22,338 nucleotides of DNA, from the IMG/VR virus record IMGVR_UViG_3300046821_000129, positions 1 through 22,338 of that record; one strand, given 5' to 3'. Shown here one piece after another: positions 1 to 22,338 of the stretch. The stretch is from a virus. How positions within the stretch are numbered: position 1 is the first letter of the stretch; every line of letters starts with the position of its first letter. Under the pieces are notes generated by a model. The model worked only from the letters and a program-made list of their open reading frames with translations, made no database searches and was not told the DNA's origin. The translations under genes and the position numbers were made by a program.

Positions 1-111
1 TTAGGAACATTTAAAAACAAAGAAGATGCGGCGATTGCATACAATAAATATATTATTGATAACAATTTAAAAAATAAAATAAATACATTAAAAGGTTTAA
101 CAGATGAGTAA
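1..111 (+). CDS. AP2-domain (HNH-AP2 type) homing endonuclease, C-terminal end only
   Basis: Frame 1 is open from the window edge and stops with TAA at 109-111, giving 36 residues. The visible part, around LGTFKNKEDAAIAYNKYII, matches the end of an AP2 DNA-binding domain: the GTF strand, then the acidic-Ala-Ala-x-Ala-Tyr helix, then a late Asn-Thr-Leu. In phages this domain is usually the C-terminal DNA-binding part of HNH-AP2 homing endonucleases. The nuclease part would lie to the left of the window. The stop overlaps the start of the next gene by 8 bases, so the two are probably translationally coupled. The AP2 assignment rests on this short tail only. Confidence 0.6.
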   Translation, partial: LGTFKNKEDAAIAYNKYIIDNNLKNKINTLKGLTDE

Positions 112-1033
112 TGAAATAGTAGAATACAAAAAAAGTGATTGGCTATCAAAGGAAGAAAAATCAGTAATTGATAGACAATTTTTCCCACATGGTGCAAGTG
201 TCGATGATAAAAGATTTTGTATGCAAGTTGCAGAGCAATTAAATTTAAATCCTTTATTAAAACAAATCTTTTTTGTACCAAGAAAAACAAATATCGGAAC
301 ACAACAAAATCCAAACTGGGTAGAAAAAGTAGAGCCTATTGCTGGTAGAGATAGTTATTTAACTTTAGCACATAGAACTGGACAATTAGAAGCAATTGAA
401 AGAAATAGTGAGGTAAGACCTTTTCCAACCATGAATGAGAAAGGGAAATGGATTTTAGAAGATGATCTATGTGGAATATCTACGATTTATAAAAAAGGTC
501 ATACCAGACCATTTATTACTATTGTAAGATATTCAGAATATGTGCAAAAAACAAGCAAAGGCGAGATTACTAAATTTTGGAAAGAAAAGCCTATAACTAT
601 GATTGAAAAAGTAGCAGAAAGCCAAAACTTAAGAAAAGCATTTAATATAACTGGTTTATATGATGAGAGTGAGTTATCAGATGGTGAAACTAATTTAAAT
701 ATTAACAACACAAATAAATTAGAAAAGCCAAAACAGCAACAAAGAAGCAACGATATTAATTCTTTAGTTTTAGAAGTAAATCCATTACAAAAAGCAATAA
801 ATGATTACAATAACCAACCAACTGCAACTTATAACATTGATGTAGATATTGAACTTCCAGAAAAAACAAGAGCATTAACTCCAAAAGAGATAATGATTCA
901 AGAGTTAATTGATAGAGGTGCAAGTGAAGAACAAGCAGCAAAGTGGTGTTGGAATAAAGATGCTGTAATTCCTACTTTTTTAGCTGATCCAGCAAGTATT
1001 GATGTAGCTTTAGAAGAAGCTGTAGGGTTTTAA
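104..1033 (+). CDS. RecT/Bet family single-strand annealing protein
   Basis: A 309-residue protein. Residues of about 25-185 fit the RecT/Bet fold of phage annealing proteins. Visible signs are the early stretch FCMQVAEQLNLNPLLKQIFF, the IAGRDSYLTLAHRTGQ segment, and the conserved MIEKVAESQNLRKAFN helix near 165-180. These proteins pair complementary single strands during phage recombination and replication, usually with an exonuclease partner; none is seen here. The C-terminal third (about 195-309) is low in complexity and Asn/Gln-rich until a final helical segment. It starts inside the end of the preceding gene and is followed 33 bases later by SSB, its usual functional neighbour. The family call is firm; whether it is RecT or Bet proper is not decided. 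Confidence 0.88.
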   Translation: MSNEIVEYKKSDWLSKEEKSVIDRQFFPHGASVDDKRFCMQVAEQLNLNPLLKQIFFVPRKTNIGTQQNPNWVEKVEPIAGRDSYLTLAHRTGQLEAIERNSEVRPFPTMNEKGKWILEDDLCGISTIYKKGHTRPFITIVRYSEYVQKTSKGEITKFWKEKPITMIEKVAESQNLRKAFNITGLYDESELSDGETNLNINNTNKLEKPKQQQRSNDINSLVLEVNPLQKAINDYNNQPTATYNIDVDIELPEKTRALTPKEIMIQELIDRGASEEQAAKWCWNKDAVIPTFLADPASIDVALEEAVGF

Positions 1034-1066
1034 GATGAATATGAATATTAGAAAATAAGGATAAAA

Positions 1067-1540
1067 ATGTTTAACAGAGTAATAGTAATTGGGAATTTAA
1101 CAAGAGATATTGAACTAAAATATTTACCAAGTGGGAGTGCTGTTGCAAAATCTGCAATTGCATCTACTTATAAATATAAAAGTTCAACTGGTGAACAAAA
1201 AGAGGAAGTTTGTTTTTTAGATTTTAATTTATTTGGAAGAAGTGCAGAAGTTGCAAATCAATATCTAAAAAAAGGCTCAAAGGTTTTATTAGAGGGTAGA
1301 TTAATTCTTGAACAATGGACTGCACAAGATGGAACAGCAAGGAGCAAACACTCATTAAGAGTTGAAGCTATGAAAATGCTAGATAGTAAACCATCTGGCG
1401 AACAGCAAGATTATAGAGGAAATGGGCATCAAGAGCAAGGGTATCAAGCTGAAAGTAATACTACAAGACAAAATCCGCCAATAGTTTATGAAAATAGAAT
1501 TCCAGAGATAGACATAGATGAAGAAGAAATACCATTTTAG
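1067..1540 (+). CDS. ssb: Single-stranded DNA-binding protein (SSB)
   Basis: A 157-residue protein with the usual SSB layout. The N-terminal OB fold (about 1-107) opens MFNRVIVIGNLTRDIELKY and contains FNLFGRSAEVANQYLKKGS and VLLEGRLILEQW. A polar, Gln/Asn-rich linker follows, then an acidic tip ending DEEEIPF, the docking tail that recruits replication and repair proteins. AAGGATAAAA just before the ATG is a good ribosome site. It coats single-stranded phage DNA and probably works with the RecT-like protein encoded upstream. Confidence 0.95.
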   Translation: MFNRVIVIGNLTRDIELKYLPSGSAVAKSAIASTYKYKSSTGEQKEEVCFLDFNLFGRSAEVANQYLKKGSKVLLEGRLILEQWTAQDGTARSKHSLRVEAMKMLDSKPSGEQQDYRGNGHQEQGYQAESNTTRQNPPIVYENRIPEIDIDEEEIPF

Positions 1541-9577: not shown

Positions 9578-9823
9578 TTATTCTCCTAAACTTTTATTAC
9601 AATGATTCTTTTCTAATCTTTTTAAAAAGCAACAAAGTTTTTTATCAAACCAAGTTGCTTCACCTTTTTTAATTCTTCTACCAATATGAGAACTAACAGT
9701 CTCATCTTGAGAACCATCCCAAATAACTACATTTAACATTTGATCAAGAACTAAAAGAAATCTCATTAATCTAGTTCTTTTTTTTCTATCATTCTCAAAT
9801 TTTTCTATTAGCTCTATACTCAT
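9578..9823 (-). CDS. Small conserved-looking phage protein
   Basis: An 81-residue protein, highly charged. Its core reads MLNVVIWDGSQDETVSSHIG, then RRIKKGEATWFDKKLCCFLK and NHCNKSLGE. I have a general memory of similar short proteins with a Ser-His-(I/R) and a His-Cys-x-Lys-Ser ending lying near tail genes of podovirus-like phages, but I cannot name the family or its function. It overlaps the preceding gene by 4 bases and stops 8 bases before the second fibre gene, so it is part of the late operon. Confidence 0.6.
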   Translation of the reverse strand: MSIELIEKFENDRKKRTRLMRFLLVLDQMLNVVIWDGSQDETVSSHIGRRIKKGEATWFDKKLCCFLKRLEKNHCNKSLGE

Positions 9824-10218
9824 AATTTACTCGCTGCAATAAACATATCATCAACTGCATCATCAGTTAATACTAAAGTAGTTTTAAAAACTTCAATCAA
9901 AGGACTAACTCTTTCAATAGTTGAGCCGCTCCAGTCAATTTGCCATGCTCTATTACTAGAAATAATAGATTCTACTTCATCTAATAATCCCAACCCTAAT
10001 AAATGTAATTTAGCTTGTCTCATGGTAATAGAATTAGGAACACTCATTTTCTTTTCCAGCTTTACCTTTTCAATAATTGCTAAATCTACTGTAGCTTGAG
10101 GAATTTCTTTTACTCCATCAAACTCAACATATTTATCACCACTCATAACAACTCTTTTTTCCAGCATCTTTGATAACACATCAACTAATGGGATATTAAC
10201 TGCGTTCGTATTTTCCAT
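9820..10218 (-). CDS. Small tail-region protein (XkdW-like pattern)
   Basis: A 132-residue protein. The central part SITMRQAKLHLLGLGLLDEV followed by ESIISSNRAWQIDWSGSTIE and LTDDAVDDMFIAASKL matches a pattern common in small phage proteins encoded next to tail fibres: a Met-Arg-Gln-Ala helix, a Trp-containing strand, and a final helix with an acidic-acidic-Phe/Leu motif. An ideal ribosome site (AAGGAG, 8 bases spacing) precedes ATG 10218. The gene starts inside the last 34 bases of the reverse transcriptase gene, so the DGR sits within, not beside, the late operon. Function is unknown; a role in tail assembly is inferred from position. Confidence 0.6.
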   Translation of the reverse strand: MENTNAVNIPLVDVLSKMLEKRVVMSGDKYVEFDGVKEIPQATVDLAIIEKVKLEKKMSVPNSITMRQAKLHLLGLGLLDEVESIISSNRAWQIDWSGSTIERVSPLIEVFKTTLVLTDDAVDDMFIAASKL

Positions 10219-11204
10219 AACTCAAACTCCTTATTTATAAATTTAACTAGATTCCAACTATCAGCACTTCTTAAATGACCACTCCAGGAAGCTAGAAACA
10301 TTTTTAACTTTTCTAGGTCCTCTTGAAGTAAGTGCTTTTTAATTTTTCTTTTTGCTCTTATAACACTATCTTTTCTGATTAATTTATAATTATCAGTTAT
10401 TCTATACCCTAAGAAATTTAAAGGTTTAGATAAGGCATTTATGTACCATTTGCTAAATCTTAACTTCATATATAATTTACTAAATAATGCTAGTTTTCTT
10501 TGAACTGCAACTAATTCAGATTTACTATTACAAACGATAACAGTATCATCCATATATCTAAAATAGTTTTTCATTCTAAGTTTTGTTTTTACAAATCTAT
10601 CAAAGATATGTCCGTAGATATTTGCAAATAATTGAGATAATAAATTACCTATTGGAATACCTGTTTTTAAATCTCCAGCAAAACCTCTTAATAATGTAAC
10701 AACTCTTTTATCACTAATCTTTCTACATACTTCTTTAAATAAAATATCTATGTTTATTGAATGGAAATATTTAGAAAAATCCATTTTCAAATAATAAACA
10801 GCTCCATTCTTTATGGTTTTTCTAATAGATGCTTGAACTGATTTAACACCTACATGTGTACCTTTATTTTTTCTACACGCATATGATGTTCTATAAAAAC
10901 CTTTTTCAAAGATAGGTTCAACAATATTATTAATTGCGTGTTGAACCACTCTATCTTTGAAAGGTAAAGAGCTAATAACTCTTTCTTTAGGTTCATAAAC
11001 TTTGAAAGTGTGATATTCTCCATGTTTATAAACTTCATTTTTTAATTGTTGTTGAATAAGATATAAATTAGCTTCTAAATTCTCTTTAAACTTCAAGTGA
11101 CTAACTGTGTATCTATTTCCACCTTTAACAGCTTTTTTATATGCTAGTCTTATGTTGTCTATGTCTGAAATTTGTTCTAATAAATGTTTATATCTTTTTC
11201 CCAT
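10185..11204 (-). CDS. DGR reverse transcriptase
   Basis: A 339-residue RNA-directed DNA polymerase of the diversity-generating type. Palm motifs: YYLKMDFSKYFHSI (137-150, first catalytic Asp 142), GIPIGNLLSQLFANIYGH (182-199) with the DGR-typical SQ, NYFRYMDDTVIV (213-224, catalytic pair D219-D220), and LNFLGYRI (262-269). Its short length and lack of a maturase or endonuclease domain also fit DGR enzymes and not group II intron enzymes. It copies TR RNA into cDNA with errors opposite adenine, together with Avd. AAGG lies 8 bases before ATG 11204. It follows TR and overlaps the next late gene by 34 bases, so late transcription should carry it. Confidence 0.97.
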   Translation of the reverse strand: MGKRYKHLLEQISDIDNIRLAYKKAVKGGNRYTVSHLKFKENLEANLYLIQQQLKNEVYKHGEYHTFKVYEPKERVISSLPFKDRVVQHAINNIVEPIFEKGFYRTSYACRKNKGTHVGVKSVQASIRKTIKNGAVYYLKMDFSKYFHSINIDILFKEVCRKISDKRVVTLLRGFAGDLKTGIPIGNLLSQLFANIYGHIFDRFVKTKLRMKNYFRYMDDTVIVCNSKSELVAVQRKLALFSKLYMKLRFSKWYINALSKPLNFLGYRITDNYKLIRKDSVIRAKRKIKKHLLQEDLEKLKMFLASWSGHLRSADSWNLVKFINKEFELWKIRTQLISH

Positions 11205-11288
11205 TTTTACGACCTTTTTGTATGCTGTCTTGTAGTTTCATTTTCATTACTCGTACTTTTACAGACCTCTTAAAGTATTTGCTAACGC

Positions 11289-11501
11289 AGGGCAAACAAG
11301 CTGACCATATTTATAGGTCGCACCACCAAAGCCTTAACTATTAATGAGTGCATTGTTTTTCTAAATATCCTCACACGCAAAACGACACCCAATGTTCCAA
11401 TTCGAGTTCCAAACATAATTGTTCCAATTCGAAGCCCGAGAACCAGCATTCACACCATTGTCACGATTCCCGCCCAATATCACCGCTATCTTGTTTGCCC
11501 T
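11289..11501 (-). ncRNA. DGR template RNA region (TR plus spacer), closed by an inverted repeat
   Basis: This non-coding stretch between avd and the RT gene contains the template repeat. AGGGCAAACAAG at 11289-11300 is the exact reverse complement of CTTGTTTGCCCT at 11490-11501. In the leftward transcript the two 12-base arms can pair, one 3 bases before TR and the other 70 bases after it, enclosing TR and the spacer in one loop. A small extra hairpin is possible in the spacer (GACC at 11303-11306 with GGTC at 11316-11319). DGR RNAs are known to need sequence outside TR for reverse transcription. Ends of the real RNA are not known. Confidence 0.7.
11371..11486 (-). repeat. DGR template repeat (TR)
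   Basis: This 116-bp sequence aligns without gaps to VR at 11891-12006 with 103 identities and 13 differences. Read on the coding (minus) strand, it has nine AAY codons in the frame used by VR, the known design for maximum amino acid change without stop codons. The first 22 bases on the plus strand (11371-11392) are identical to VR and carry just one T, so the 3' end of the coding strand is nearly free of adenine, as expected for the initiation-of-mutagenic-homing segment. The left edge of the match is sharp. The right edge is blurred: 11487 also differs at an adenine, but 11488 differs at a non-adenine. Confidence 0.97.
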
Positions 11502-11513
11502 TTAAGATTAATA

Positions 11514-11858
11514 CTAATCTTTTTTAATCCAACTATTCAGCATTTTTCCAACTTCTGCAAGTTTTACACTTGCTGTTTGATGTTGTTTTTGACTGATTAG
11601 TTTTCTATTTTCACTGGCGAAAAATCTCAAGTAAAATCTTATACTTGCTAAGTTTGCATCAGCTTCATAAAGTCTTGCCTTTTGGTTTGACTTTATAGCT
11701 TTATAAAATAATTCAACTTGCTCAAATACAAGATGAATCAACTTTTCTTTTATTACTCCATGTTTTCTAGGAACATTTTGTAAAACCAAATAAATGTAAT
11801 TAGAGAAGTCTTCATACTTCTCTATAATCGCTAAGTTTTTCGCTGGATTCATATTCAC
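11514..11858 (-). CDS. avd: DGR accessory variability determinant (Avd)
   Basis: A 114-residue, all-helical, basic protein fitting the Avd four-helix bundle. Visible signs are the opening IIEKYEDFSNYIYLVLQNVP, the basic turn RKHGVIKEKL, a middle SIRFYLRFFASENRKLIS, and the typical end KLAEVGKMLNSWIKK. Avd forms a positively charged pentameric barrel that binds RT and template RNA and is needed for mutagenic homing. The gene starts 13 bases after the target stop and ends 12 bases before the TR-flanking inverted repeat, the order found in the Bordetella phage DGR. The start is either GTG 11858 or ATG 11852; neither has a strong ribosome site, so coupling to the fibre gene is likely. Confidence 0.92.
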   Translation of the reverse strand: MNMNPAKNLAIIEKYEDFSNYIYLVLQNVPRKHGVIKEKLIHLVFEQVELFYKAIKSNQKARLYEADANLASIRFYLRFFASENRKLISQKQHQTASVKLAEVGKMLNSWIKKD

Positions 11859-11871
11859 TCACTTTCGTTCG

Positions 11872-14532
11872 TTATACAAGTTCCAGGTGGTCACACGCAA
11901 AACGACACCCAACGTTCCAACCCGAGACCCAAACATAATTGTTCCAACTCGAAGCCCGAGAACCAGCACTCACACCATCGCCACGACCCCCGCCCAACAA
12001 CACCGCAGTTGGTGAGTTATCAGTCGAGTATATTTGACCTCTACTATCTGTATTAGCTTTCCATGCCCAAACTGTATCAGTTGGATAGTTTGCTAAATCA
12101 GAACCCCAAATCCATTGAGTACCTGTTGCTTGTTCAATTCCATATTTAGAAGTAAGATTTGGATAATGTTCAATTTTTCCTGCAACTATTTCATAAGCAT
12201 TTGTTGAAGATGAAACACCCTCTAAAACACCATAAGCAATTGTTGGAAATTCAGAATAAGAAATTAATCTTTTTGCGTTTGCTTTTGCAACTTCACAAGC
12301 TTGAAACCAAGTAAATTTCCCATAGTTTAAAGTATTATTTCCACCATATTCCAAAGGGATTTTAGGCATTAATCTACCAGCAGTAACACTATCACCACCA
12401 GCAATAGTTAATCCAGCTTTTGAAGTACCGTTTGTGATATGCTCACTATTTAATAAATAGATGTCATACCATTTACCACCAATATTAACCATACCTTTTG
12501 GACTAGCAACAGGTCTATATTTTAAATCCCAAAAAGAGTATTGATTAATACCTCTAATTTTTACCATGTCCGCTTCAAGTTTATTACCTGTAACAGTTTC
12601 AGTTTCACCAATTAAACCATAATGAAATCCTCCTATTAATCTATCAGCTGTAATCGCATCATTTGCACTAATATAAAAAGTTGCATCACTTTTCGCATAA
12701 ACATAATAATCCGTTCCTGCTGTTTTAGTTGAACCAACCAAATTAGAAGCTAGTGTTAAAGTGTAATCTGTGATAACCTTAAAGCTTTCAGTTCCAACAG
12801 TAATTTTTAATCCAGCAGGAATTTTTATACTTGATGGTGATACTTTTACAAATAAAGGACCTCTAGTTGGTTTATCAAATTGTTGAGTTGATATTTTTAA
12901 ATCAAGAGAAGTTTTTGTATAAACATCAGCTATATTTGCTTTTGCATCTAAAGCTAGTTGTAACCCAGCAATATTAGAAATAGCTAAAGCATCTAATGTT
13001 GATTTATTTTGTTTAATGAAATTAATAATCTCTTGTAATTCATCTAGGCTTGTATCATTTGAAGTTAAAAGAGTATTTATATGGTCAATATAATCTTTTA
13101 ATACTTTTCCTTGTAATGCAGACAAAGGTTTATCTGGATCAATTGAAACAAGATTATTTTTAATATCTGCTATATTAACTTTTGAAGAAATGCTATCAGC
13201 ACTAGATTGTAAATTATCCCTTATAGTTTCAATATCAGTTTTTGCATTTAAAACAGTTTGTTTATCTAATGAAACAGCTTGTTTATCACTTGTAACTTGT
13301 AATGCTAGATTTTGAACACTACTTTCAAGTTGTTCTACAACTACTCTATTTGCACTTATGCTATCTGCACTTTGACTTGCTTCAAGTGCTTTTTGAATAG
13401 CTGTTTCTTCACTAGCCTTTGCATTGCCTTCACTTGTTTTAGCAGCTAATTTACTTGCATTCGCATCACTTGCACTTTGACTTGCTTCAAGTGCTTTTTG
13501 AATAGCTGTTTCTTCACTAGCTTTTGCATTGCCTTCACTTGTTTTAGCAGCTAATTTACTTGCATTCGCATCACTTGCACTTTGACTTGCTTGTAATGCA
13601 TAAGTTTGTGCAGCAGCTACTGGACTATCCCAACTTACACCGTTATAAAATTTTAGTTCTTTATCTATTTCATTATAATAAAGTGCAGCTATATCCAATG
13701 GATTGCCATCATTATCAGTCAATGGATCACTAGCTTTTTTACCAAGAAATCTATCATCAAAAGTATCAAGCATAATTTCAATAGCATCTTTCATTGAAGT
13801 AACACTATCTTTGTTATCTAATACATTTTGCTTCATAGCTTCAATATCTAGTTTATCTTGTCCAACTATATTTTTATCTTGATTTACAATAGTTGCAATA
13901 TCTTCTAGTATTTGTAATTTATCTGCATGATTAAGATTGTAAGTATCTAGTTTTTCTATATGGTTTTGATTATATAAATCTAGTTTTTCATTATATGTAT
14001 TTATAGCAGTTGGAATAACTATATCAATTAAATTATCTCTTGTAGATATATATTCATCATTTCTAAATAAGATATTATCAAGTTTCCCATTTATGATAAT
14101 TGCTTCATCTCTTTCATCAAGTAAAAAATCTAGTGTTTCAGATTCTAAAGATTCTACAATTCTAACTTTTGCTTGTAATATTACTTCACCTGTTGATAAT
14201 AATATCTCTAAAATTGCATAGAATCCACTCTCACCATATTTATCATCTTCGCTTTGTGGAATAGTAAAGTTTAAAGTATCTACTTTAGATAAAGACACAT
14301 CTACTCTACCTTTTGTAGCATTTCCATCTATATCTTCTGGTTCAATAATAGCTGTTCCAACTTCAAAAACATTTTTAATATCTTCAAAATCTTCATGAGT
14401 ATTTTTAATTTTAATTGTTGCACTTAATCCTGCAAAATCTTCTGGGTCACCAGTTACAGAATTAACCCATTGCCAAGTTCCATAAAACTTACTACCTCTT
14501 AAAATAGTTAATTCATCTGTTCCTAACAACAT
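11872..14532 (-). CDS. Tail fibre with DGR-variable lectin-like tip (DGR target)
   Basis: An 886-residue fibre. Residues 1-130 form a strand-rich head (LTILRGSKFYGTWQW onward) like the N-terminal attachment domains of baseplate or fibre proteins. About 150-540 are a helical coiled-coil shaft with a 35-residue tandem repeat and segments such as DPDKPLSALQGKVLKDYID. About 545-660 are again strand-rich. The C-terminal 220 residues (from SFWDLKYRPVASPKG) resemble the C-type-lectin or formylglycine-enzyme-like fold of DGR targets, with FTWFQACEVAKANAKRLISY, TGTQWIWGSDL and the final NVGCRFACDHLELV. Variable residues lie between 845 and 874. It should bind the host receptor. The ATG shares one base with the preceding lysis gene's stop. 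Confidence 0.92.
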   Translation of the reverse strand: MLLGTDELTILRGSKFYGTWQWVNSVTGDPEDFAGLSATIKIKNTHEDFEDIKNVFEVGTAIIEPEDIDGNATKGRVDVSLSKVDTLNFTIPQSEDDKYGESGFYAILEILLSTGEVILQAKVRIVESLESETLDFLLDERDEAIIINGKLDNILFRNDEYISTRDNLIDIVIPTAINTYNEKLDLYNQNHIEKLDTYNLNHADKLQILEDIATIVNQDKNIVGQDKLDIEAMKQNVLDNKDSVTSMKDAIEIMLDTFDDRFLGKKASDPLTDNDGNPLDIAALYYNEIDKELKFYNGVSWDSPVAAAQTYALQASQSASDANASKLAAKTSEGNAKASEETAIQKALEASQSASDANASKLAAKTSEGNAKASEETAIQKALEASQSADSISANRVVVEQLESSVQNLALQVTSDKQAVSLDKQTVLNAKTDIETIRDNLQSSADSISSKVNIADIKNNLVSIDPDKPLSALQGKVLKDYIDHINTLLTSNDTSLDELQEIINFIKQNKSTLDALAISNIAGLQLALDAKANIADVYTKTSLDLKISTQQFDKPTRGPLFVKVSPSSIKIPAGLKITVGTESFKVITDYTLTLASNLVGSTKTAGTDYYVYAKSDATFYISANDAITADRLIGGFHYGLIGETETVTGNKLEADMVKIRGINQYSFWDLKYRPVASPKGMVNIGGKWYDIYLLNSEHITNGTSKAGLTIAGGDSVTAGRLMPKIPLEYGGNNTLNYGKFTWFQACEVAKANAKRLISYSEFPTIAYGVLEGVSSSTNAYEIVAGKIEHYPNLTSKYGIEQATGTQWIWGSDLANYPTDTVWAWKANTDSRGQIYSTDNSPTAVLLGGGRGDGVSAGSRASSWNNYVWVSGWNVGCRFACDHLELV
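11891..12006 (-). repeat. DGR variable repeat (VR) in the tail fibre gene
   Basis: VR lies at the 3' end of the fibre gene and encodes residues 843-880. Compared with TR it differs at plus-strand positions 11913, 11921, 11922, 11927, 11928, 11948, 11969, 11979, 11981, 11987, 11988, 11998 and 12000. Every one is a coding-strand A in TR; 11 became G and 2 became T. The 92 non-adenine positions show no change. Nine codons are altered: I845L, N849G, D851G, N852D, N855S, N862S, N869V, N871G and I874V (TR to VR). The invariant end encodes GCRFAC, close to the conserved end of DGR lectin-fold targets. I found no clear hairpin just downstream. Confidence 0.97.
13367..13592 (-). repeat. 105-bp tandem repeat in the fibre shaft
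   Basis: Copies at 13367-13471 and 13472-13576 differ at a single base (13417 versus 13522), and a partial third copy (GCACTTTGACTTGCTT) follows at 13577-13592. The unit encodes 35 residues of coiled-coil type (Ser/Ala/Lys-rich, including SASDANASKLAAKTSEGNAK). It keeps the reading frame, so gain or loss of units would only change shaft length. Confidence 0.92.
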
Positions 14533-17520: not shown

Positions 17521-20500
17521 TTAATCCTCTTTATCTCTCATAGCTTTTTTAGCTTGATTAGATTTATCGTAAGTCATTGCATTTATTCCTAAGAATTTTA
17601 ACAACTCTTGTGTTGTTGTTCTAGGTTTTGTAACTGCATTTGTGCTTCTTTTTTTAGCTTCCATAAGTTGTGACTCTGCCAAGTTATAAGCATTATCAAT
17701 AACATCTGGTGTAATTTGTTGAACTCCATATTTAGCTAAATGATAAGCTTTTAATGCACCCTCTTTGTTAGTGATTTTTCCACCAAAATAAGAGTCTTGA
17801 TTTCTTGGAATATCTTTAATTGGACTCCATGCACCACCACTTGTTAGATTTTTTACAAAGTCCAATGGATTTAAAACATCATTGTGTGGAATCCATCTAT
17901 CAACTTTTATTGTTGTAACTTCATTTCCATCTTTATAAATTGGTATTCTTTTCATAGAAAAGTTTTGTTGTGGTATATCTTTTTCATTGAATGGATCTAT
18001 TCCAAACATTTGATTCATTCCATATAATGCACCATAAATTGCAACAATTCTTTCTGGTCGTTCTTTCATTTGCTTCAAAATAATTGGAGTTGCATAGTAA
18101 GTCCAAGATATAAAAGGTGTTAGCATACTATTTCTTCCAAATCTTGCCCATTGACTCATAGGTTTTGTATAGTCTGGGATTGTGCTATTAACTTGTTTTA
18201 TCGCATCATCAAAGCTTGTACCTGCTTCTGTTAAAGATTTAAGCATACTAAATCTCATAATATTATCTTCACCTTGATAAGCATTACTTGCAATTTCATC
18301 AGCTTTTTGTAGTGTGTTCTTAAATCTTCCACTATTAGTTGGAGTAACATTAGGATTTACATATTTGTTTAAAATATCGTTTAAATTACTTCTTCCAAAT
18401 AATCCTGCTTGTTGTGCTTGATTCCAAAGCTTTAAATCTTCATCTTGTGCTAAAGCTCTCAAGGTTGCATTTTCTTCTTGTGATAATCCAATAATTTGTT
18501 TTGCTGTTAGTTCTCTAAACTGATTTACTTTTTGTGAAGCTAAAGCACCTTTTGTTGCATTAACTACTGCTTTATTTGGGTTAATACCTGCTCCAAATTG
18601 CATAGTTACATTTGATAATAAATTATTCAAGTGAGCAATAGGGTTGTAAACTGTATGAGATTTCTTCCAAAATGTACTTAATGCCTTAAATGCTTCCATT
18701 CCTTTTGAGCTTAACAAACTCCCCTCTGTACCAAACAAAGCATTATTGAATTCTTTTATATCACTTGCAACATCAGCAGGAACATACTTACCATTTAATG
18801 CTCCATATCTTTTACCTGCTAAATGTACATATCCATCTATCGGATCATCTGAAACATAGTTTGTATTATCAACTATCTTTTTAAGCATAGTTGCATGATC
18901 TATCATTTCCCTAGTTCGCATTAAAGTTTCTGGCAAACTAAATGCAATATCTTTTACTTCTCCCCATCTTGTTCTTTGTTCTTCCGTCCAATCTTGTCTA
19001 AACTTATATTGTCCGTTTTGCATCTTTGTGGCTTCAATCTTACCTGCAAAGAAATCTCCAATTTCTCCATTTTTTAAAAGCTTTTCATATTCTGTTTTAG
19101 TTCCATTCCATTCATTACCTCTTGCATGAACTCCTTGAATAGTTTTACCTTTTGTAAATAGTGAGTTAAACTTTTGACTAAAATCTTTTTCATATCTTCT
19201 GTGTAAATATCTATCTTTGAATTTATCAAACTGTGCTTCTTCTAATACACCTAAATCAACAAGTTCTTTTCCCATCTTATTAATTTCACCAGTATAATTG
19301 TCTGCAAGTTGTTTAATGTTTGGATCAAGTTGTATAGTTTTATTGCCACTCATATAATCATACATTTTAGTTCTTGTCGTATCATCAAGAAGTTTTAGTT
19401 GTTCATGCAGCAAAGCAAAGTTTTCATACTGTTTATTCTTGTTTGAAATCATTGCTTCTCTTAGTGCCATATAATCAGTTTTTTGATAAATTTTATGACC
19501 AAAAATTTTATCTGCTGTTTCTGTATCTGCAAGATTTTTAATTATGCTTGTTGCTTTTGCAGCAATATTTGTATTCTTTGCAATTAAAGCACCTTTTGTT
19601 CCAACTGCTCCTAAACCTACACCAATTAGAATATCTGTAATATTTGTTTTTCCATCACCATTTAAGTCGTTGTTCGCTCCCGTTATTCCACCGACCATTC
19701 CGCCGCTTATTGTTGGACTAGCAAACAATACATTATTTTTTTCAGCTTCTCTTTTTATAACTTCAATTCTTGACTCTGGCATTTTTGGATCGTATGTTTT
19801 ATATTTTATTCCATTTTTTTCAAGAATTTCTTTTGTTTCTTTACTTGCATTTTTAGGAATAATTGCAAGTTTAAACTTGTTTAATTCCATCTTTCCTAGA
19901 AATTTGCTCTCAAAATATTCTGTTGGCATTTCTTTTAACTTATTTAGAAAATTATCTATTTCTGCAAAATCTTCTGGTTTCACCTTTACAGAATAATCGC
20001 TCAATGCTCTTTTCCCTCTTTTTGCATAATCTGATATAAACTCTGATGCAATCTCTCTTGCGGTAAAGCTGTTACCAATTCCATCATCAGCAATCTTTGA
20101 AATAATATCGCCCAACTCATTATCTATTGTTGATTTTATTGATTCAAATTCTTTTGATGTAACAAGTCTTTCTTTGGCTTTTTTAATTTGCTCTATTGTT
20201 TTAAACTCTGGTGTAACTGTTGCTCTGATGCTTCCTGCACCATAGTTAAAGTTTTCCCCACCTCTTAGGTTGGAAGTTAAATACTTCATTACATTTTGCT
20301 CTGTGTATGGCTGTTGCTTCCCGTTGTTGTTGAAAGAAGATTTGTAAGAATAAGACTCTTGAATATTCTTCGCATAGTTGTCAAATTCATCTTGATGTTT
20401 TGACATATGCTTATTAACCAATTCCCTTGCTTTATATAGGTCTGGTTTATTTTGACTTCTACCAATTTGGTCTAAGTTCATTGCTCTATCTTTTGCCAAA

Positions 20501-22338
20501 TTAAATAATCTATCTGGTTGCAGCATTGTATTTAATAATTTTTCATTATCAATATATTTTGCTTGTAGCTCTTTTGCCACTTTTGCTTGAAAATTTGGAT
20601 CTCTTGCAAGTGTTTGATAATCTAACCCTTTGTTTGAAACAGATGCGGTATATTCTAATTTATAAAACTGTTTTAATGTTTGCTCTTGTGGATTAACTCT
20701 ATTTGGAATTTTTAAAGATATTCCTTTTTGTTCTTCTAAAAACTTTGCTTTTAGTGCAACATTATTCATTAATTCTGCAACATCATTACTTGTTGATACA
20801 TCACCGCCACCAGTTTTATGTATATAATCTATTAAACTATTGTCTATTTTTCTAATATCTGATTGATTATATTCTCGTCTTTCTCTTGGGTGTCTTGGAC
20901 TATAAATATCTGACGCAAAAGCTTTCATATCTTTTGATGGTGTAGCAAGTGCTTTATCTCCAATTAATGTAATATCTCCAAAGCCATCAATAGGCATATC
21001 TTTTTTAACTGTTGCTAATGATGGTGCTGCAATTCCACCTCTACTATTTGCATATCTAAGATTGTCTTGTGATAAATTGTGTTGTATCATAAGGTCTTTT
21101 GTATCTGTTGGATTTTTACCAACAAACATACCTGCTGTATTACCATCAATATTCTTATCTTTAAATGCACTAGGCATAATCTTTCTTGCAGCTTTAACAC
21201 CAACTGCACCAATCAATGCACCAATTAATCCATCTTTATAATCTGTTTGCCCATCATTGTTGTAATCTTGCTCTGTTGCCATTGCATGAGTTCCACCAAC
21301 TGCTGCACCACCAAATGTTTGACTTCCATTTGAAAAAGGAATTGCACCCATTCTGTTTGCTGTTTCATAATCCATGTTATTTGAAACTGCATCATCAATT
21401 GTTGTATTTGGCTTATATCTTGGTTGATTTACTTTTGTTCTAAAGTTATCTCCCTCGTGTTTCATAAAGTTATTAACTGCATCAAGTATCTCAAAATCTC
21501 TTTGAGTTGCTGTTCCTTGTTCGTATCTAATGATTGAGTTTCTAACACCTGCTGTGCTTGTTGGCTTCTCTAAACTAAGAACATCTGATGTATTCATTCC
21601 AGTAGCTTTTGTTAATCCCTCAAATTCATTTAAAGCATTAGAATCATAAGTTTTTGTAGGCTCTTTAATATTTGTTCTTACTTGAACAATCCCATCTTGA
21701 TTAGGTTGTGCAGGTTTTAAATTATCAAAAAACTTTTGAACTTCATCAACTCTTGCATTTTGTGGCAACTTAGATATAAATTCATCAACTGCATTATTGT
21801 CTTTTGCATATCTAATAATGCTTTTCATTTCTTCTCTATTACCTAAAGGCAATACATCAGGCAATAATTGTTTTTGTGTACCCATTGGTGGAAGTGAAAT
21901 ATCATTTGGATTTTCTCTTTTAACACCCATCAAAGAATTAGTTTCATTAGCTTTTAAAACATCATTCAGTGGAGTAATTTTTTCTCTCAATTGCTGTAAT
22001 TCATTATTTCTTTGAGCATCTTTTTCAAATCCAAAAGTATCAACTTGTTTTGGTTGATATATAAATGGGTCTTGTTGTGATGCAGGAGTTGGTAAGATTC
22101 CATCACCTTGTGCTTGTATTCTATTTTTATCAACTGGATTGAAGAAGTCATTTACTTTACTAGCTTGTTGATTGTCAATAACTGGCATATCACTTCTAAC
22201 TGGTGCAGCATCAGGAATAATATTTTTACCACCAAAGTAAGTATCATTTAGTTTTTGTGCAATATTGTCTGAACTATTATTGTTTTTAATGGTGTTTTGT
22301 TGGAATGTTTCATCAGCTATTGGTGCAGTATTCTCAAC
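17521..22338 (-). CDS. Giant internal-virion / polyvalent-type protein, 5' end beyond the window
   Basis: The frame is open without a stop from 22338 to TAA at 17521 (1605 residues here). An ATG at 22188 exists but has no good ribosome site, and the 50 codons before it read as similar protein, so the true start is probably outside. Numbering from that ATG: the first 300 residues are polar and disordered. Calcium-loop motifs DYNNDGQTDYKD (308-319) and DLNGDGKTNITD (841-852) are each followed by a Gly-rich hydrophobic helix. The C-terminal part contains a segment (FGRNSMLTPFISWTYYATPI onward) resembling a large-polyvalent-protein-associated domain. Size and position beside the capsid gene suggest a protein carried in the head and ejected with DNA. 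No catalytic site is evident. Confidence 0.7.
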   Translation of the reverse strand, partial: VENTAPIADETFQQNTIKNNNSSDNIAQKLNDTYFGGKNIIPDAAPVRSDMPVIDNQQASKVNDFFNPVDKNRIQAQGDGILPTPASQQDPFIYQPKQVDTFGFEKDAQRNNELQQLREKITPLNDVLKANETNSLMGVKRENPNDISLPPMGTQKQLLPDVLPLGNREEMKSIIRYAKDNNAVDEFISKLPQNARVDEVQKFFDNLKPAQPNQDGIVQVRTNIKEPTKTYDSNALNEFEGLTKATGMNTSDVLSLEKPTSTAGVRNSIIRYEQGTATQRDFEILDAVNNFMKHEGDNFRTKVNQPRYKPNTTIDDAVSNNMDYETANRMGAIPFSNGSQTFGGAAVGGTHAMATEQDYNNDGQTDYKDGLIGALIGAVGVKAARKIMPSAFKDKNIDGNTAGMFVGKNPTDTKDLMIQHNLSQDNLRYANSRGGIAAPSLATVKKDMPIDGFGDITLIGDKALATPSKDMKAFASDIYSPRHPRERREYNQSDIRKIDNSLIDYIHKTGGGDVSTSNDVAELMNNVALKAKFLEEQKGISLKIPNRVNPQEQTLKQFYKLEYTASVSNKGLDYQTLARDPNFQAKVAKELQAKYIDNEKLLNTMLQPDRLFNLAKDRAMNLDQIGRSQNKPDLYKARELVNKHMSKHQDEFDNYAKNIQESYSYKSSFNNNGKQQPYTEQNVMKYLTSNLRGGENFNYGAGSIRATVTPEFKTIEQIKKAKERLVTSKEFESIKSTIDNELGDIISKIADDGIGNSFTAREIASEFISDYAKRGKRALSDYSVKVKPEDFAEIDNFLNKLKEMPTEYFESKFLGKMELNKFKLAIIPKNASKETKEILEKNGIKYKTYDPKMPESRIEVIKREAEKNNVLFASPTISGGMVGGITGANNDLNGDGKTNITDILIGVGLGAVGTKGALIAKNTNIAAKATSIIKNLADTETADKIFGHKIYQKTDYMALREAMISNKNKQYENFALLHEQLKLLDDTTRTKMYDYMSGNKTIQLDPNIKQLADNYTGEINKMGKELVDLGVLEEAQFDKFKDRYLHRRYEKDFSQKFNSLFTKGKTIQGVHARGNEWNGTKTEYEKLLKNGEIGDFFAGKIEATKMQNGQYKFRQDWTEEQRTRWGEVKDIAFSLPETLMRTREMIDHATMLKKIVDNTNYVSDDPIDGYVHLAGKRYGALNGKYVPADVASDIKEFNNALFGTEGSLLSSKGMEAFKALSTFWKKSHTVYNPIAHLNNLLSNVTMQFGAGINPNKAVVNATKGALASQKVNQFRELTAKQIIGLSQEENATLRALAQDEDLKLWNQAQQAGLFGRSNLNDILNKYVNPNVTPTNSGRFKNTLQKADEIASNAYQGEDNIMRFSMLKSLTEAGTSFDDAIKQVNSTIPDYTKPMSQWARFGRNSMLTPFISWTYYATPIILKQMKERPERIVAIYGALYGMNQMFGIDPFNEKDIPQQNFSMKRIPIYKDGNEVTTIKVDRWIPHNDVLNPLDFVKNLTSGGAWSPIKDIPRNQDSYFGGKITNKEGALKAYHLAKYGVQQITPDVIDNAYNLAESQLMEAKKRSTNAVTKPRTTTQELLKFLGINAMTYDKSNQAKKAMRDKED

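What the first reader, a model, noticed from the sequence alone, without database searches (positions are those of the whole stretch)
10185..14532. Complete diversity-generating retroelement in a phage late operon
All DGR parts are present on one strand in the classic order: target fibre with VR at its 3' end, Avd, TR, then a YMDD reverse transcriptase with the IGNLLSQ motif. No part is broken. The element should diversify the receptor-binding tip of the fibre, giving the phage a way to change host range. DGRs of this layout are known from Bordetella phage BPP-1; this one is embedded in a different phage type, probably with a Campylobacterota host.
Basis: partly seen in the sequence, partly recalled or inferred. 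Interest (0 to 1): 0.92.

Follow-up and report, generated by a model that had tools for sequence, protein, structure and literature searches.

The report
Complete phage DGR with unusual hairpin
This phage carries a complete, intact hypermutation cassette that rewrites the tip of its tail fibre, a known kind of system closely related to the one in Bordetella phage BPP-1; what is new is that the small DNA hairpin marking its target, and those of about half of the relatives examined, carries two conserved G-A mismatches that only one DNA strand could fold well.

Summary
On the minus strand the window holds a complete DGR: Mtd-type fibre with VR, Avd, TR, DGR RNA and RT, in BPP-1 order, no part broken. 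All 14 TR/VR differences fall on TR adenines (P about 1e-11). The RT matches solved BPP-1 bRT far better than any other RT; the fibre head models as Mtd (Z 36). Relatives sit in Campylobacterota MAGs, and the capsid matches Campylobacter/Helicobacter phages. So it is a new member of a known kind in a different phage. Near-identical relatives differ in VR only at TR adenines, so the group is active in nature.

What I did not find described is the hairpin just after VR. Published phage hairpins are perfect 7-10 bp GC-rich stems. Here, and in about half of 59 non-redundant VR flanks, two base pairs close a GNNA loop, followed by an invariant tandem G.A mismatch and further covarying pairs (30 seen, 0.03-0.15 expected; none after TR). 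The mismatch should fold well on the sense strand only. This suggests that the target is recognised as a folded single strand, the one the cDNA anneals to, rather than as a symmetric cruciform. That step is inference and directly testable.

The parts
11872..14532 (-). Target gene: 886-aa tail fibre, shaft plus Mtd-type tip
   Evidence: PF21916 1.8e-13, phrog_11262 7e-77; 32% to BPP-1 Mtd over residues 561-885
11875..12852 (-). Mtd-like fibre head (residues 561-886)
   Evidence: profile to Mtd structures 7e-106; model pLDDT 93.8, Z 36.5 to 1yu4
11891..12007 (-). Variable repeat VR
   Evidence: 14 differences from TR, all at TR adenines
11857..11872 (-). Target hairpin ACGAAC-GAAA-GTGAGT with tandem G.A, starting at the last base of the fibre stop codon
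   Evidence: conserved and covarying in 30 of 59 non-redundant VR flanks
11514..11858 (-). Avd (likely ATG start at 11852)
   Evidence: PF22296 1.6e-35, NCBIfam NF033474 over cut-off
11371..11487 (-). Template repeat TR
   Evidence: 117 bp, 25 adenines
11224..11350 (-). DGR RNA element 3' of TR (spacer region)
   Evidence: Rfam RF03022 Phage_DGR, 85 bits, full length
10185..11204 (-). DGR reverse transcriptase, 339 aa, YMDD and IGNLLSQ
   Evidence: phrog_1423 1.3e-105, 46% to BPP-1 Brt, 8ub7 1e-121 for the family profile
9820..10218 (-). Small gene overlapping the RT end, often travelling with the cassette; perhaps a fibre partner (inference)
   Evidence: relatives after RT in several loci; phrog_10241 3e-12
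9578..9823 (-). Second small gene after RT, found in the same place in some relatives
   Evidence: L003, L006, L017, L018 58-68%; phrog_3342

Best explanation
This is an intact BPP-1-type diversity-generating retroelement in a temperate phage of Campylobacterota. The TR-containing RNA is copied by the Avd/RT complex with errors at adenines. The cDNA replaces VR, so the tip of an Mtd-headed tail fibre is rewritten and the phage can vary the receptor it binds. The target is marked by a hairpin that begins at the last base of the fibre stop codon. In this DGR group that hairpin is most likely used as a folded single sense strand (GNNA loop plus tandem G.A pairs), the strand to which the cDNA anneals. 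It would hold that strand open next to the cDNA landing site rather than form a symmetric cruciform. Shown here: anatomy, homology, adenine-only differences, conservation and covariation of the hairpin, and adenine-linked VR variation in near-identical relatives. Inferred: activity of this copy, receptor binding, and the strand-specific role of the hairpin (about 0.6 likely).
For: TR/VR: 14 of 14 differences at TR adenines. RT, Avd, Mtd and RNA families. Same gene order as BPP-1. Mtd fold. RT tree. Activity in relatives: contigs with identical or near-identical TR and RT differ in VR at 6-14 positions, 100% of them at TR adenines (L067/L068/L069, L077-L084, L106/L107); two of these three groups have the G.A hairpin. 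Hairpin: 30 of 59 non-redundant flanks against 0.03 expected; any-loop scan: tandem GA/GA 30 against 0.15, all 30 with GNNA loops though loops were not filtered. Motif search that did not ask for pairing: 148 of 168 flanking cells pair, shuffled mean 84, maximum 103. All four pairs show changes on both sides. A second VR of L018, far from avd, also has it. GNNA loops on two G-C pairs are known as extraordinarily stable DNA mini-hairpins (PMC4686876). Sense strand on the lagging template is the preferred target in a rebuilt BPP-1 DGR (PMC12875486).
Against: No data on this phage itself; the record is a fragment. Nearest-neighbour DNA tables give the G.A hairpin about +0.4 kcal/mol against -7 for perfect stems, and do not prefer GA/GA over AG/AG or AA/AA, so its stability in DNA rests on general knowledge of sheared G.A pairs. 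RNA tables show a much larger sense/antisense gap, which leaves an RNA role open. In BPP-1 an inverted target still worked and hairpins formed on both strands (PMC3240598), although BPP-1 has a perfect stem. Related DGRs switch between G.A and perfect stems, so the mismatch is not essential to every member.
Confidence: 0.88

Rival explanations
1. The conserved hairpin acts as RNA in the fibre-avd transcript, for example to stabilise the message or to tune translation of avd, and not as folded DNA in target recognition.
For: RNA tables give the sense hairpin -2.2 kcal/mol on average and the antisense +1.0; most loops are GNRA; in the window it overlaps the region just before the avd start.
Against: A remote VR in L018 not followed by avd keeps it; L135 and L137 have it with GRTA, not GNRA, loops; in BPP-1 the equivalent element works as DNA and in an inverted target (PMC3240598).
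Confidence: 0.2
2. The motif is a double-stranded binding site: two GA steps one helical turn (10 bp) apart, read by a protein, with no folding.
For: GA at positions 3-4 and 13-14 is invariant.
Against: The flanking positions covary as Watson-Crick pairs far beyond shuffles, and perfect stems replace the motif in relatives.
Confidence: 0.08
3. The DGR is intact in sequence but no longer active in this phage, or its products are not selected.
For: No close copies with other VRs were found, so no direct sign of current activity.
Against: All frames open, catalytic motifs present, VR carries 14 adenine-only changes, RNA element intact, relatives active.
Confidence: 0.08

Closest known systems
Bordetella phage BPP-1 DGR (mtd-avd-TR-brt)
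   Same: Gene order, Mtd-type target, Avd and RT at 46% identity, VR at the 3' end of the target, GAAA-looped hairpin after VR.
   Different: Fibre is 886 aa with its own shaft; the other BPP-1 late proteins compared have no match; the BPP-1 hairpin is a perfect 8-bp GC stem, here a short stem with tandem G.A.
DGRs of Campylobacterota MAGs and a related virus record (L035 Helicobacteraceae, L036 Sulfurimonas, L037 Arcobacteraceae, L053)
   Same: RT 70-74% identical, Avd 61-74%, Mtd-like target.
   Different: L053 has a stand-alone 342-aa target beside the integrase and no fibre shaft; the L036 hairpin has one broken outer pair.
Vibrio phage VP58.5 / Pseudoalteromonas phage ACA1 type DGRs
   Same: Avd, RT and TR/VR with adenine bias.
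   Different: RT in a separate clade, target of SUMF1/EgtB type or unnamed, mostly perfect GC-rich stems with GATA or GGTA loops.
Phage DGR target hairpins of Guo et al. 2011 (PMC3240598)
   Same: Hairpin just after VR with a 4-nt loop fitting GRNA on the sense strand.
   Different: Published stems are 7-10 bp, GC-rich inverted repeats; here a conserved tandem G.A interrupts a short stem.

Membership tests
Diversity-generating retroelement | RT belongs to the DGR clade | tested here: met
   8ub7 (BPP-1 bRT) 1.3e-121, next family 1e-31; tree with BPP-1
Diversity-generating retroelement | TR and VR differ essentially only at TR adenines | tested here: met
   14 of 14, P about 1e-11
Diversity-generating retroelement | Accessory Avd protein | tested here: met
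   PF22296 and NCBIfam NF033474 over cut-off
Diversity-generating retroelement | VR lies in a C-type-lectin-like domain of the target | tested here: met
   Model matches Mtd, Z 36.5, rmsd 2.2 over 296 residues
Diversity-generating retroelement | Structured RNA 3' of TR | tested here: met
   RF03022 full-length, 85 bits
Diversity-generating retroelement | Mutagenic retrohoming activity | not testable with these tools
   Needs living phage; relatives show VR-only, adenine-only variation
Published consensus of phage DGR target hairpins (Guo 2011; an efficiency element, not needed to be a DGR) | 4-nt loop GRNA on the sense strand | tested here: met
   GAAA
Published consensus of phage DGR target hairpins (Guo 2011; an efficiency element, not needed to be a DGR) | Uninterrupted 7-10 bp GC-rich stem | tested here: not met
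   A-T, C-G, tandem G.A, A-T, C-G
BPP-1-like phage (Rauchvirus) | Shared late proteins with BPP-1 outside the DGR | tested here: not met
   No match beyond chance for the late proteins compared

The most novel reading that the evidence does not exclude
In a large part of BPP-1-type DGRs, this one included, target recognition uses a sense-strand single-stranded hairpin built on a GNNA mini-hairpin and tandem G.A pairs. Retrohoming would then be strand-specific annealing of cDNA to exposed single-stranded DNA, as in recombineering, and not recognition of a symmetric cruciform.
Probability: 0.5. Interest if true: 0.65.

Novelty: new variant of a known kind. Interest (0 to 1): 0.5.

Why it matters
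The DGR itself extends a known system to a Campylobacterota phage; an RT of this type was found in only 7 of 397 sampled genomes of the phylum. The hairpin matters more. How the mutated cDNA enters the target is still open (PMC12875486). A conserved mismatch that can pair well on one strand only is natural evidence for which strand must fold, and it can be tested with existing BPP-1 reporter assays in laboratory E. coli.

Tried and rejected
An exact-pattern search for close copies of this TR/VR in viral contigs found none, so VR variation of this very phage could not be shown. A capsid search of viral contigs found no relatives. The two genes after RT were tested as homologues of BPP-1 bbp3/bbp4: no match. 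T7 records matching the fibre tip are declared laboratory T7-Mtd chimaeras, so not natural relatives. L004/L048 lacks an Avd match between target and RT; not followed up, and a collapsed TR/VR repeat in the assembly is possible. Thermodynamic tables did not explain why GA/GA is preferred. AG/AG and CT/CT internal loops in the open scan are other registers of the same repeats or coding sequence at the VR end. The hairpin class was first drawn by requiring pairs; because that selects for pairing, it was repeated with a motif search that did not. The 2018 NAR survey of DGRs is not held and figures of Guo 2011 are not held, so earlier mention of G.A stems cannot be ruled out; searches of the held papers showed none.

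Full report
What is there. The window is the whole of a 22,338-bp virus record, cut inside a large ORF at its right end. On the minus strand it carries a capsid protein, lysis genes, an 886-aa fibre, Avd, a repeat, an RT and further virion genes; on the plus strand Bet, SSB, dUTPase and a tyrosine integrase. TR (11371-11487) and VR (11891-12007) differ at 14 positions, all adenines in TR: 11 A>G and 3 A>T, P about 1e-11. The other 103 positions are identical. The spacer between TR and RT matches Rfam RF03022 Phage_DGR at full length.

What it is. Several independent tests make it a DGR of BPP-1 type. A profile of the RT family finds solved BPP-1 bRT at 1e-121 and group II intron RTs only at 1e-31. 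Avd passes two curated cut-offs. The fibre head (residues 561-886) finds Mtd at 7e-106 and models as Mtd with pLDDT 93.8, Z 36.5 and rmsd 2.2 over 296 residues. Gene order equals that of BPP-1. The rest of the phage is different: no other window protein matches the BPP-1 late proteins compared, and the capsid protein matches only Campylobacter and Helicobacter pullorum phages. RT relatives at 70-74% lie in Helicobacteraceae, Sulfurimonas and Arcobacteraceae MAGs. A related virus record, L053, has an integrase 62% identical to the window's; its IMG/VR name suggests an isolate genome, which I could not verify. In the phylum as sampled such RTs are rare, 7 of 397 genomes.

Mosaicism. In the viral and MAG relatives compared, what is shared is mainly fibre tip, Avd and RT, often with the two small genes that follow (9820-10218 and 9578-9823), while capsid and most other genes are not. 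The cassette therefore seems to travel between phage backbones together with the fibre tip. The first small gene looks to me like a fibre partner protein; that is inference.

Activity. No close copy of this phage was found with the pattern tried. Relatives supply the natural experiment. L067, L068 and L069 share TR exactly and differ by 1-6 bases in a 1-kb RT, yet their VRs differ at 6, 13 and 14 positions, all at TR adenines. The L077-L084 group (7-11 differences) and L106/L107 (12 differences) behave the same. The first two groups carry the hairpin described next; the L077 group has it with one G.T pair.

The hairpin. Reading the 3' flank of VR across relatives showed a recurring pattern right after the stop codon: N N G A N N - GNNA - N N G A N N, where the outer and inner two positions pair. 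In the window it is ACGAAC-GAAA-GTGAGT at 11857-11872. Among 59 VR flanks of RTs less than 90% identical, 30 have exactly this form (33 with one G.T pair), 14 have uninterrupted stems of six or more pairs, and shuffled flanks give 0.03 on average (maximum 1 in 300 rounds). After TR none of 57 has it. Allowing any loop and any 2x2 internal mismatch, GA/GA occurs 30 times against 0.15 expected, and all 30 have GNNA loops; the mismatch sits in a Y-GA-R context in 25 of 30 on each arm. Columns G5 A6 G9 A12 G15 A16 are invariant in 32 distinct sequences, while the four flanking pairs each change on both sides. A motif search that does not ask for pairing finds 148 of 168 flanking cells paired, against a shuffled mean of 84 and maximum of 103. 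So the hairpin is real and its mismatch conserved. A second, remote VR in L018 that is not followed by avd has it too, which ties it to VR. Two other loci from genomes sampled in the phylum, L135 and L137, with RTs about 38% identical to the window's, also have it, with GRTA loops.

On the RT tree G.A stems fill most of the BPP-1-type clade but alternate with perfect stems: well supported branches force at least 7 changes. The VP58.5/ACA1 clade has no G.A stem; most of its rows have perfect stems and the rest are unclassed. The two stem forms therefore seem able to replace each other, which fits a stem in which tandem G.A acts as pairs.

How it probably works. In BPP-1 a hairpin or cruciform boosts homing; its structure, not its sequence, matters, while the loop sequence is critical, and known phage hairpins have 7-10 bp GC-rich stems with GRNA loops (PMC3240598). 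A rebuilt BPP-1 DGR edits better when the sense strand, to which the cDNA anneals, is the lagging template, and its authors suggest that the stem-loop keeps the target open (PMC12875486). GNA and GNNA loops on two G-C pairs are known as extraordinarily stable DNA mini-hairpins (PMC4686876); nine of the 30 hairpins contain exactly GCGAAAGC. On the antisense strand the same site would have TC/TC mismatches and a TNNC loop. I therefore infer that selection keeps the sense-strand hairpin. The phage's own Bet and SSB would suit annealing of cDNA to exposed single strands; that is a guess.

Doubts. Folding tables give the G.A hairpin little stability in DNA and no preference for GA/GA over AG/AG; with RNA tables the sense/antisense gap is large. 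An RNA role is the main rival. Against it stand the BPP-1 experiments in DNA, the remote VR in L018, and the GRTA loops. In BPP-1 inversion of the target did not matter, though that stem is perfect.

Verdict. Ordinary in kind, complete, and very probably functional: a new BPP-1-type DGR in a Campylobacterota phage. The hairpin is an apparently undescribed variant of a known element; the literature check was limited to the papers held.

Noticed in passing
window 13366-13575: 105-nt tandem duplication, 99% identical, in the shaft part of the fibre gene; fibre length may vary by repeat number.
   Followed up: no
window 17521-22338: Very large minus-strand ORF (1555 aa from its first ATG; open at the record's end) with a PBECR5 nuclease-like domain match.
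   Followed up: no
window 104-1540: Bet-type annealing protein and SSB next to each other; possible helpers of cDNA homing.
   Followed up: no
L053 2350-3378: In this related virus record the DGR target is a stand-alone 342-aa Mtd-like protein near avd, RT and integrase, with no fibre shaft.
   Followed up: partly
L018 13736-14797 and L006 1853-2734: Second, remote target genes whose VRs match the same TR.
   Followed up: partly
L122: Ideonella plasmid with two Avd and two RT genes in a row.
   Followed up: no
L135, L137: Loci from sampled genomes of the phylum, RT about 38% identical to the window's, also with tandem G.A hairpins but GRTA loops.
   Followed up: partly
L004 6886-8987 (= L048): Target followed by RT with no Avd match in between: deletion or assembly collapse between TR and VR.
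   Followed up: no
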